DNA of 37,192 nucleotides, from assembly GCA_016748015.1 (NCBI GenBank), contig JAAOMT010000299.1, positions 432,810-470,001 on the forward strand, written 5' to 3'. Numbering within the stretch: the first letter of the stretch is position 1; every line of letters starts with the position of its first letter. Both the position numbers and the translations under genes were made by a program. A model generated the notes under the pieces. It was not told where the DNA came from and did no database searches. It worked only from the letters and a program-made list of their open reading frames with translations. Source of the stretch: Geosiphon pyriformis. Taxonomy: Eukaryota > Glomeromycota > Glomeromycetes > Archaeosporales > Geosiphonaceae. Positions 9,725-16,494 of this stretch are shown one piece after another.

Positions 9725-11543
9725 ATGGCGAACTCTCCTCCAAACTCTAAAGAACCCGCTACAAGTGGGAGTAGTGGTTTTTCCATGTCGATTCAGACAA
9801 TTAGCACTAAATGGCCAGAAAAAAGACCTAAATTTTTTGAAGAAGAAAAAAAGAAAAAACGTCGTGTAGATGATGAAGGCGAAGAAGAGTTTGACGAAGT
9901 GGTAAAATACATGACAAGTTTCGATAAAAACCAAACTCCAAGGTAAACCTTTAATTGATGTTTGTATTCTTCTTCCGAATTCTACCGAAATTTTGTTAAA
10001 CAGTTTCAACAAACTGACACAGCTCTAAAGATGCAACTGCTGCTTGTTCCCTACGGAATAACTTACCCTAACGGTATTGTATATCCGAAATTCTCCCTCT
10101 ATTTCAGTCATAAAGAAGGTCAGGAAATAAACCCCCTAGTGATCCCGTCTTTAACACTGCCGAACTGGACTGACCGAATTAGTACGATTGCGGCTCAAAG
10201 GCATTCCCTTGGAAAAGAACCTTCAAATATTTCTAAATCCGAATCTTTAAACGTTGTAACCCCCGTCTCTTACGGTTTAATGCCTAAAAATTCTATCCGC
10301 AAAAACTTTTTAAACACCGTCCATGCCCCAAGTGATAATCACAAACCCACTGACTTATTCCAGGATGAAATTCATAATCAAGAAAAAATGCTACGGCAAT
10401 TAGCTTTAGAAGAAATAATGAAAGGTATTATGATTTTATATATTTATATTTCCAAGGAATCATTTATCATTTCCACTTTATTCATCTCTTCTTGATAAGC
10501 TCATCACAATACTCTACATAGGATCAGACAAGGAAGATATTCAAAATGAGAGAGAAACAGATTTGATTTTACCGCAGATTGAAAACAATTATACCCAAGA
10601 TAAAAAAGTCAAAGATGATGATGAAGCTTTTCGGTGTATGATTGATAGCTATCCGGATGAGGTAAATTAAATAAAAATCATTTCAGATTTTTCCCCTCCG
10701 AAATCTTGCGTCCGAGTTTCTGGCACTCTATAACTCATTAATTCTCACCGAAATAAGGCAAAAATAAATTATGAACGCATTCCTATACAAGAATTCGGGG
10801 CAGCACTATTACGCGGTATGGGCTGGAAGCCAGGAATGAGTATAGGGAAAAATCAAACGAATAAGTATGTTAAAAATAATTAAATATCCTTTATATCTGA
10901 CCTCAGTTCCCTAATTAATCCGACTTATATAATACAAAGAGCTCTAAAATTATATGAACCCCAACATCGACCTACCCATTTGGGTCTTGGAGCATCAGTA
11001 CTTCCATCCTCACACTTAATGGAACAAAGGTAGTTGCATATTGTAAATTTTGATTTTTCGTTCAAAACCACAGGCATAATTATAGCCTTATCTTAATCCT
11101 CATTACGTATTCATACAAAGTTTCATTCGTTTCTTATTTGAAGCACAAAATTCCAAAATGTAACTAGTGCAGTGATTCCGAAAAGGGTTGAAAAGGTAGA
11201 TCGAGCACAATCTAACAACCCTGAAAGGGGGATTGATAGGACTCGCGAAGATGAGTCTAAAAAAGATAAAACTCCTAATATTGGGGAAAATTCCCGACAA
11301 TTTCGGAGGACTACGCATGGTGACAGTAATCGACGAGATCATCATTCTAGTCGAAATTATCGGTATGAAAGTCCTGCGAGATCTGAGAGTAGAGGAAAAT
11401 CTGATTTTTCGCCTAATAGAAAAGACGAGTCACATCGGCATAGGAGGTCACGAGATAGTCATGAGAAGGCTTCTGACAAACCAAGAACAAGGGAAGAATA
11501 TAAAAAAGAATATCATTCAAGAAAAGACAAAAGAAAGGAATAG
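9725..11543 (+). CDS. SPP2: Spp2/GPKOW-type G-patch splicing factor
   Basis: Spliceosomal G-patch protein; the family activates the DEAH helicase Prp2. Exons: 9725-9942, 10108-10424, 10522-10661, 10758-10864, 10940-11029, 11168-11543. All have GT-AG ends and the sum is 415 codons plus TAG. The N-terminal part is Lys/Glu-rich (about residues 30-60), followed by the INPLVIPSLTLPNW motif near residue 182. The G-patch spans about residues 226-272. It shows YERIPIQEFGAALLRGMGWK, then a GKN element, and ends in the family signature HLGLGAS. The last exon is an Arg/Ser/Asp-rich tail (about 291-415). No KOW motif is visible, unlike animal GPKOW, so it is closer to fungal Spp2. The first intron and the start of exon 6 are the least certain splice choices. 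It converges on the Prp2 helicase gene. Family call is strong, exact ends moderate. Confidence 0.85.
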
Positions 11544-11731
11544 CAGATCACCAAGTATACCTATTCCTTGGCCAAGAAGGTAAGCACAGAAAGAAGGTAA
11601 TGTTTTCTTCCTTATATTTGTAATAATGTTTGTGCCAAGCTAACCCTCTTTCGAGTTCAATAAGAGTGAGGCGCTTGGAAGAAAATATATATAGGTAATA
11701 GAAATTCTAAGTTTACTGCTAGTCGATATTT
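11544..11731. other. 188-bp convergent 3' interval between SPP2 and PRP2
   Basis: This interval must hold the 3' ends of two genes transcribed towards each other. A second frame, open just past the SPP2 stop, reads RSPSIPIPWPRR before a GTAAGC donor-like site, so an alternative last exon of SPP2 cannot be excluded. Given the small space, overlapping 3' UTRs are likely (inference). Confidence 0.6.
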
Positions 11732-14700: not shown

Positions 14701-16494
14701 AATTACTTGATAGTCGTTTATGGCCTTGAGTAAATCATCACGGAACTTATAAATGGGGAGAGACTTGCGTGTATCTTCAATTGTTTTTGCTGAAGAAAAT
14801 TATTAGAATCAAAAGTATATTCTACAATCATAAATTAAGAAAATAACAACATTATTAAGGAGGATACCTTGTCTTTCAGCTTCATCAACTAGAGCTGAAA
14901 TATCATCAGTTTTATTTTTCCAATCCCAATTTAGAAATTCCATTTCTTGCTGCTCATCAAAAATGTAATCATACTCTTTTTCTTCCTTTGACCTATCCTG
15001 AGCACCTGTCTTCAATTGAGATTTTACGATTTGATTTTGTTCCCATTGATCTTGGTCAGTAACGAACTTGTTTTGATCACGATCCTCTTCGTAGCGTTGA
15101 TACAGAACAGACTCCTTCTTCTTTTTATCGATTTTCCCCAGTTCAGTGATATAATCTAATGAGTAGAGCAAAGAATCATCAGAATGTCATAAAGCAGGTT
15201 AAGAGTTTCAATCAAATTATCACCTTCAGGTAAAGAGTATTCTTCTGTTTTTTTAGAAAGGCTCAACCTTCCTTTCGTCAATTGAAGAGTATCTTTCTTT
15301 AATTCATAATCCCTTTTTTCTTTTTTCGTCAACTTAGTATCTTTGAACAAAGTTTCCTCATCACGGATTTCTTGTTCCATTAGCAGCATTTGCTGTTCGG
15401 CCCGAGCTTTCAGATAATCTTGACGAGATCTTTCTCGAATATTAGGCAAATATTCTTTCCGCGCTTCTGGATCGTCAGCAAGATTACGTCGTAGAACAGA
15501 TTCACTTTGTGATTTTGACGATCGATCTTCTATTAGCTGTCTCATATGCAATTAATAATTTTAGTAGTAAAATAAAAAAGCTGAAAGCATACTTTAGCTT
15601 TTACTTGACCTACCTTTTTTGTTTTTTCCTTATCCTTCTCTCTGATCCGCTTTGCGAATTCATCTCTTTCCTTTAAATCTTGCATTTTTTCCCGCTGTTC
15701 TCTTTCATAGGCATCTTCAGGATCTATCATAAAATATATCAGCCTATGCTCGAAGTACGACAGTAATTATGACCATGTTTAACCTACCAGGGGATTCTTC
15801 TTTATCACTAGGATTCAGCACCCTGCCATCATCTTCTGGGTCACTTTCCCAAGCGTTGGACAATTCCTTTTTGCGGAGATGTTTGCCTTTCTTTGATTTC
15901 TTTGATTTTTTCGAGAAAATTCCGCCGTCATCTTTATTATCATTGGGATGTTCGTCTAATAGAAGTTTATATTTTGCATTGTTCTCTATTTTAGCTTTGG
16001 CTTCTTGCTCTTGTCTTTTACGTTTCAATGACGCGATCTGGAAAACAAGTTTTTAAATGTTAAAAACAAAAATCAACAAACAATCAGGAACAACAAGTAA
16101 AAGATCCAATTTCCAGAGACCTATCATACATTGGGTTGAGAAGCAGAGGCCTTTCTTGGAACGCGTTCAAATAGTTGATCTATAAAGTCTGAAGCTCCAT
16201 ATGGGAACTCGCTCAACTTTTGGTGAAGGGATTCTTTTGATTTTGCAGATTGAGCTGTAATTACATTGATTTATCAAGTTTTTATTTGAAATTCTAGGAA
16301 ACAGCTTTTAAAGAGACTCATTTTGTTGAAAAATTTTACCTTGAGCTATGATGTAATCGACCATGTTACTTTCCGAAATGTTCAGGAACTAGAAATGAAA
16401 ATTTTAATTACACTTTTTAATTCTGTAATCCTAAGAAGTTATGAACTCTAAAAACCTTTATTATATTGTCTGAGACCCAAGAGCGCAAATCCAT
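11732..16494 (-). CDS. PRP2: pre-mRNA-splicing DEAH-box helicase Prp2/DHX16
   Basis: RNA-dependent ATPase that activates the spliceosome before step 1. Nineteen exons (5' to 3'): 16456-16494, 16340-16388, 16130-16254, 15788-16037, 15614-15723, 15224-15536, 14868-15155, 14527-14789, 14282-14464, 14096-14198, 13875-14008, 13638-13796, 13420-13551, 13182-13346, 12897-13109, 12684-12827, 12221-12388, 11929-12151, 11732-11838. They sum to 1055 codons plus stop, close to the roughly 1040 aa usual for DHX16. The first exon gives MDLRSWVSDNIIK. A long charged N-terminal extension (to about 390) carries the DHX16-like HLRKK and VPRKA segments. Helicase motifs: I GETGSGKTT (about 425), II DEAH (about 523), III SAT (about 555), IV FLTGQDEIE, V TNIAETSIT, VI QRTGRAGR (about 724). 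The C-terminal part has the ratchet/OB-like region with FELVLTSQEYMRQV. Catalytic motifs are intact and no frame breaks were found. Confidence 0.95.

What the first reader, a model, noticed from the sequence alone, without database searches (positions are those of the whole stretch)
9725..16494. Prp2 helicase and its G-patch activator Spp2 are adjacent convergent genes
The window holds an intact Prp2/DHX16 gene (all DEAH motifs, DHX16-like N-terminal and C-terminal segments) and, tail to tail with 188 bp between stops, a G-patch gene with the Spp2/GPKOW signature (EFGAALLRGMGW ... HLGLGAS). Spp2 is the known cofactor that binds and activates Prp2 in yeast. Linkage of a helicase with its dedicated activator is unexpected in a eukaryotic genome and suggests conserved synteny, co-regulation through antisense 3' ends, or chance.
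Basis: partly seen in the sequence, partly recalled or inferred. Interest (0 to 1): 0.75.

Follow-up and report, generated by a model that had tools for sequence, protein, structure and literature searches.

The report
Neighbouring splicing helicase and activator genes
In the fungus Geosiphon pyriformis the gene for a splicing motor (Prp2) sits tail to tail with the gene for its activator (Spp2); both look ordinary and intact, and they seem to share a contig in one distant relative but not in two others, so this looks like an old neighbourhood kept in places rather than a new mechanism.

Summary
The window (Geosiphon pyriformis) holds an intact 19-exon PRP2/DHX16 gene (minus, 11732-16494, 1055 aa, 86% identical to Ambispora over residues 1-1043) and an intact 6-exon SPP2/GPKOW-type G-patch gene (plus, 9725-11543, 415 or 423 aa), 188 bp between stops. 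Human DHX16 scores 1125 bits against 793 for the best other helicase family; the G-patch protein matches only GPKOW and yeast SPP2 among solved structures.

Linkage could be tested, only through contig lengths and gene tags, in three other species. In Diversispora epigaea both genes carry the same scaffold prefix and contig length (Glove_123g204 and g207). In Ambispora gerdemannii, from Geosiphon's own clade, and Acaulospora morrowiae they lie on different contigs.

Best reading: two ordinary genes whose linkage is probably ancestral in Glomeromycotina, kept in some lineages by tight packing and lost in others. Nothing here shows co-regulation, and one survey finds convergent pairs rarest among conserved pairs and, in fungi, not tied to shared function. 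A G-patch/DEAH pair 12.7 kb apart elsewhere in this genome, apparently not partners, warns against over-reading proximity. Low interest, apart from the Diversispora lead.

The parts
9725..11543 (+). SPP2/GPKOW-type G-patch gene, 6 exons (9725-9942, 10108-10424, 10522-10661, 10758-10864, 10940-11029, 11168-11543), 415 aa; the deposited 423-aa protein fits a last exon that starts 24 bp earlier (11144)
   Evidence: deposited protein G9A89_020335; Pfam G-patch_2 75.2 bits
10767..10997 (+). G-patch_2 domain, split by the intron 10865-10939
   Evidence: C373:443576-443806; window = C373:432810-470001; invariant columns
11544..11731 (.). 188-bp stretch between the two stop codons, 35% GC, no AATAAA on either strand between 11400 and 11900, one palindromic TATATATA at 11686-11693
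11732..16494 (-). PRP2/DHX16 DEAH-box helicase gene, 19 exons, 1055 aa
12954..13040 (-). HA2_N winged-helix segment of PRP2
   Evidence: C373:445763-445849
16699..18736 (+). Neighbouring gene with UFD1 domains and TRAFD1/XAF1-type zinc fingers, divergent from PRP2 with 204 bp between start codons (extent approximate; exons not modelled)

Best explanation
Two ordinary spliceosome genes, PRP2 (DEAH helicase) and SPP2 (its G-patch activator), lie tail to tail and tightly packed in Geosiphon pyriformis. Their proteins should act as in yeast and human: Spp2 binds Prp2 through its G-patch and promotes the ATP-driven remodelling of the Bact spliceosome (inferred from family membership). The close linkage probably arose once in an ancestor of Glomeromycotina, was kept in Geosiphon and Diversispora through tight packing, and was lost in other lineages. 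The gene order itself need have no function. Shown here: gene identity by sequence scores, open frames, 188-bp spacing, and matching scaffold prefix and contig length in D. epigaea. Inferred: common ancestry of the linkage, losses elsewhere, no selected role.
For: Open gene models. Human DHX16 is the best solved-structure match over residues 3-1045, 1125 bits versus 793 for DHX8. The G-patch protein matches only GPKOW (1.1e-11) and SPP2 (9.2e-6) at E<=1. Its PF12656 hit is 67.8 bits against 27.6 for the only other hit in the genome at E<=0.001. Packing is tight on both sides of PRP2 (188 bp and 204 bp). PMC2871058 (passages read): in fungi conservation of gene pairs peaks at 100-1000 nt spacing.
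Against: In A. gerdemannii (a 'Geosiphon-Ambispora clade' is named in PMC9453076, passages) and in A. morrowiae the two genes have different contig lengths, so an ancestral linkage needs at least two losses or assembly breaks. The D. epigaea evidence rests on tags and contig length, not on the DNA, and that tags follow position is assumed. Gene-order retention between Geosiphon and Diversispora in general could not be measured. The S. cerevisiae Prp2 chain scores only 667 bits, below DHX8, Prp22, Prp16 and DHX15; I put that down to fast change in yeast, since human DHX16 and the other Prp2 chains lead.
Confidence: 0.62

Rival explanations
1. Selected linkage: convergent transcription with overlapping 3' ends, or a shared chromatin domain, tunes the two partners together, so that breaking the pair is costly.
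For: The pair is a helicase with its dedicated activator; 188 bp between stops makes overlapping 3' UTRs plausible, with one TATATATA palindrome readable on both strands; matching contig in D. epigaea; in yeasts co-regulated genes occur as adjacent pairs in all orientations, convergent included (PMC3500266, passages read).
Against: Different contigs in 2 of the 3 other species that could be checked. In a 64-species survey convergent pairs are the rarest among conserved pairs, and in fungi only divergent pairs tend to be functionally related (PMC2871058, passages read). No expression data.
Confidence: 0.14
2. Coincidence: the adjacency in Geosiphon arose alone, and the shared scaffold in D. epigaea is independent or looser than the tags suggest.
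For: Many partner pairs exist, so some should be adjacent in any genome (argument, not a computation). This genome also has a GPATCH1-type gene 12.7 kb from a DEAH helicase that is probably not its partner. Different contigs in Ambispora and Acaulospora.
Against: Gene tags three apart on the same scaffold in D. epigaea have a chance of about 2-4e-4 if tags follow position.
Confidence: 0.22
3. One of the two is mis-identified (the G-patch gene belongs to another family, or the helicase is another DEAH family).
For: The S. cerevisiae Prp2 chain ranks below DHX8 (667 versus 793 bits); the SPP2 protein carries no KOW domain.
Against: Human DHX16 leads by more than 300 bits over nearly the full length; only GPKOW and SPP2 match the G-patch protein.
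Confidence: 0.02

Closest known systems
Prp2 / DHX16 (DEAH-box spliceosomal ATPase)
   Same: Near full-length match to human DHX16 (residues 3-1045); Helicase_C, HA2_N, HA2_C and OB_NTP_bind domains; 86% identical to Ambispora and 74% to Diversispora relatives
   Different: Nothing notable found
Spp2 / GPKOW / Cwf28 (G-patch activators of Prp2)
   Same: G-patch_2 domain with 14 columns invariant across 18 aligned sequences, itself included; only solved-structure matches are GPKOW and SPP2
   Different: No KOW domain, unlike human GPKOW; long charged, R- and S-rich C-terminal tail
Conserved adjacent gene pairs of fungi
   Same: Short spacing (188 bp; fungal convergent mean 688 bp in PMC2871058, passages) and partners of one pathway
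   Different: Convergent, the class rarest among conserved pairs and not tied to shared function in fungi in that survey; same contig in 2 of 4 species examined, Geosiphon included

Membership tests
Prp2/DHX16 | Closest to Prp2/DHX16 rather than Prp22, Prp16, Prp43 or DHX35 | tested here: met
   Best scores per kind: DHX16 1125 bits; chains 6rm8/6fa9 (labelled 'putative mRNA splicing factor'; Chaetomium Prp2 by my recall) 872; DHX8 793; Prp16 700; DHX15 682; S. cerevisiae Prp2 667; DHX35 642 (best 60 of 65 matches shown). The yeast Prp2 chain ranking low is the one result against
Prp2/DHX16 | N-terminal region outside the helicase core shared with relatives | tested here: met
   Residues 1-400 alone find 463 proteins at E<=0.001, best 120 listed, many named RNA helicase or pre-mRNA splicing factor
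Prp2/DHX16 | Helicase core plus HA2 and OB domains, open frame | tested here: met
Spp2/GPKOW | G-patch of the Spp2 type (PF12656), above the curated cut-off | tested here: met
   75.2 bits against a cut-off of 26; general G-patch PF01585 19.5 bits, below its cut-off of 22
Spp2/GPKOW | Closest solved relatives are Spp2/GPKOW | tested here: met
   Only GPKOW and SPP2 at E<=1
Spp2/GPKOW | KOW domains (as in human GPKOW) | tested here: not met
   None by Pfam, and only PF12656 precomputed for the six Glomeromycotina relatives. That yeast Spp2 lacks KOW too is recalled; so this does not exclude Spp2
Spp2/GPKOW | Binds and activates Prp2 | not testable with these tools
   needs biochemistry
Conserved syntenic pair in Glomeromycotina | Same contig and close gene tags in other species | tested here: inconclusive
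Conserved syntenic pair in Glomeromycotina | Kept more often than neighbouring pairs in general | not testable with these tools
   I found no Glomeromycotina genome with gene order other than the window's own, which has no relatives held

The most novel reading that the evidence does not exclude
Prp2 and its activator Spp2 form a selected tail-to-tail gene pair of Glomeromycotina, in which overlapping 3' ends balance the dose of helicase and activator. It would be a rare eukaryotic case of a motor genetically tied to its dedicated G-patch cofactor.
Probability: 0.12. Interest if true: 0.5.

Novelty: new member of a known kind. Interest (0 to 1): 0.25.

Why it matters
If the linkage is conserved beyond background, it would be a natural handle on how the dose of a spliceosomal helicase and its activator is matched. 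As it stands, the value is a clean Prp2-Spp2 pair from Geosiphon and a synteny lead (Diversispora scaffold 123) that one look at the public assembly can settle.

Tried and rejected
Second cognate pair in this genome. The 8 HA2_N loci found and the 9 G-patch loci found (8 of PF01585 plus the SPP2 gene) were compared by position. The searches go exon by exon and score only the best candidates, so both counts are lower bounds. Three contigs carry both kinds: C373 (this pair), C314 (340 kb apart) and C317 (12.7 kb apart). On C317 a segment with DUF1604 lies about 0.7 kb upstream of the G-patch hit on the same strand; I take them as one gene and recall DUF1604 as the mark of GPATCH1. A further 420-aa stretch joined from C317 ORFs gave no Pfam family. 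GPATCH1's known partner is DHX35 (PMC13111387, passages). The C314 helicase matches human DHX35 at 458 bits. The C317 helicase gave near-ties (6i3o 315, 9l5s 314.5, DHX8 310, DHX16 298.5, human DHX35 283), so the search does not name it; 9l5s also came second for the C314 helicase (452). It is less DHX35-like than the C314 one, and from recalled motifs looks like DHX33. So no second cognate pair was found, but five of the eight helicase loci (C379, C401, C150, C333, C355) and most G-patch loci were not identified by a search.

Relatives' DNA. The Spp2 alignment A1 (18 of the 24 Spp2-type proteins returned) gave no relative in viral contigs and one in genome contigs, L037, a 5,773-bp contig filed under a planctomycete that encodes a GPKOW-like protein; no convincing Prp2 match lies on it (best E 6.4). 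That is one more case without adjacency on the stretch held. A search with the G-patch region alone (19 proteins of 78 candidates) added no further protein named as Glomeromycotina, so linkage in Rhizophagus, Funneliformis and Gigaspora could not be tested.

Papers. No held paper has Prp2, Spp2 and synteny together. Listings only: 20 of 38 papers listed; 16 of 16. Passages: PMC11134847, PMC10512289 (nothing on gene order used), PMC2871058, PMC3500266, PMC9453076, PMC13111387, PMC10234402. This does not show that the linkage is unpublished, since most subscription journals are not held.

Bacterial promoter/terminator scan of the 3' ends: not informative for a fungus. No structure was predicted and no tree was built.

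Full report
Source of the window. The window is C373:432810-470001 of a 124.7-Mb, 406-contig genome. The SPP2-like protein is 98% identical over its full length to G9A89_020335 of Geosiphon pyriformis, whose contig length (1,191,207) equals that of C373.

Gene models. I chose splice junctions from GT-AG pairs that keep the frame. PRP2: minus strand, 16494 down to 11732, 19 exons, 1055 aa. SPP2: plus strand, 9725 to 11543, 6 exons, 415 aa; the deposited protein fits a 3' splice site 24 bp upstream for the last exon and has 423 aa. Between stops lie 188 bp. The PRP2 model aligns with relatives in Ambispora gerdemannii (86% over residues 1-1043) and Diversispora epigaea (74% over 1-1044) without exon-sized gaps; only the last dozen residues are not matched in Ambispora.

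Identity of the helicase. Against solved structures the best match is human DHX16 over residues 3-1045 (1125 bits), then chains labelled 'putative mRNA splicing factor' (872; Chaetomium Prp2 by recall), DHX8 (793), Prp16 (700), DHX15 (682), S. cerevisiae Prp2 (667) and DHX35 (642). That yeast Prp2 ranks below other families is the one result against; I take it as fast change in yeast. Pfam finds Helicase_C, HA2_N, HA2_C, OB_NTP_bind and DEAD.

Identity of the G-patch protein. Pfam gives G-patch_2 at 75.2 bits, while the general G-patch model stays below its cut-off. In the solved structures only GPKOW and yeast SPP2 match at E<=1. In the own genome PF12656 has one other hit at E<=0.001, 27.6 bits (just over the cut-off) against 67.8. 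Across 18 aligned sequences, itself included, 14 columns are invariant, among them the RGMGW core. No KOW domain is present, and none is listed for the six Glomeromycotina relatives. PMC13111387 (passages) lists Spp2-Prp2 in yeast and GPKOW-DHX16 in human as partner pairs.

Is linkage conserved? No tool gave me the DNA of other Glomeromycotina, so I used the contig lengths and gene tags reported with each protein. These lists are capped (one search shows 120 of 463) and name only cluster representatives. Three species besides Geosiphon showed both genes. D. epigaea: Glove_123g204 (Spp2) and Glove_123g207 (Prp2), both with contig length 658,034. A. gerdemannii: 36,843 (Spp2) and 40,172 (Prp2; that cluster stands for four member sequences, so its contig is a little less certain). 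A. morrowiae: 5,662 (Spp2) and 29,065 (Prp2). So the genes share a contig in 2 of 4 species, counting Geosiphon itself. The two negatives come from short contigs and could in part be assembly breaks, though for A. gerdemannii both contigs are several times longer than the 6.8-kb pair. PMC9453076 (passages) speaks of a Geosiphon-Ambispora clade, so if the linkage is ancestral it was lost or broken in the nearest relative sampled. One further contig, L037, encodes a GPKOW-like protein and shows no Prp2 on its 5.8 kb.

How surprising is it? For 15,000-28,000 genes two given genes are neighbours with chance about 1e-4, and within three ranks with about 2-4e-4. For Geosiphon the passages I saw imply about 15,000 genes (PMC10234402, 46% = 6,875) to about 24,000 (PMC9453076, 129 Mb at 1.9 per 10 kb); 28,000 for D. 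epigaea is recalled. The D. epigaea result tests a pair fixed in advance and is the real support, provided the tags follow position. As a caution, the same genome has a GPATCH1-type gene 12.7 kb from a helicase that is probably not its partner.

Mechanism. The proteins are expected to work as the known pair does; that step is inferred from membership. For the gene order, the 188-bp gap makes overlapping 3' UTRs plausible, and one TATATATA at 11686-11693 reads the same on both strands, but there is no AATAAA near by and no transcript evidence. PMC2871058 (passages) reports that conserved fungal pairs favour short spacing, that convergent pairs are the rarest among conserved pairs, and that in fungi only divergent pairs tend to share function. 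PMC3500266 (passages) reports that co-regulated yeast genes pair in all orientations. On balance I take retention by tight packing as most likely (0.62), coincidence next (0.22), and selected co-regulation as possible (0.14).

Verdict. Observation confirmed, gene names confirmed by sequence scores, conserved linkage partly supported, function of the linkage not shown.

Noticed in passing
G000 contig C317:852505-865259 (loci L019-L021): A GPATCH1-type G-patch gene (DUF1604 segment close by) lies 12.7 kb from a DEAH helicase that is less DHX35-like than the one on C314 (DHX33 by recalled motifs). ORFs between them look like a mitochondrial processing peptidase and an armadillo-repeat protein (by reading, not searched).
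   Followed up: partly
16494-16699: PRP2 and a gene with UFD1 and TRAFD1/XAF1 zinc-finger domains are divergent with 204 bp between start codons, a candidate shared promoter.
   Followed up: partly
31413-31940: Plus-strand ORF with a dUTPase domain (PF00692), about 3 kb from an integrase-like ORF.
   Followed up: no
34591-35097: Minus-strand ORF with an Integrase_H2C2 zinc-binding domain, probably retrotransposon sequence.
   Followed up: no
window 11732-16494: No protein named as Geosiphon Prp2 is among the 120 relatives listed of 463, although its neighbour SPP2 is deposited; the gene may be missing or differently modelled in the public annotation, or hidden by the capped list.
   Followed up: no
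L037 (DONH01000119.1): A contig filed under a planctomycete genome encodes a GPKOW-like protein beside a DnaJ-like ORF: probably eukaryotic contamination (by reading; only the Spp2 match was tested).
   Followed up: partly
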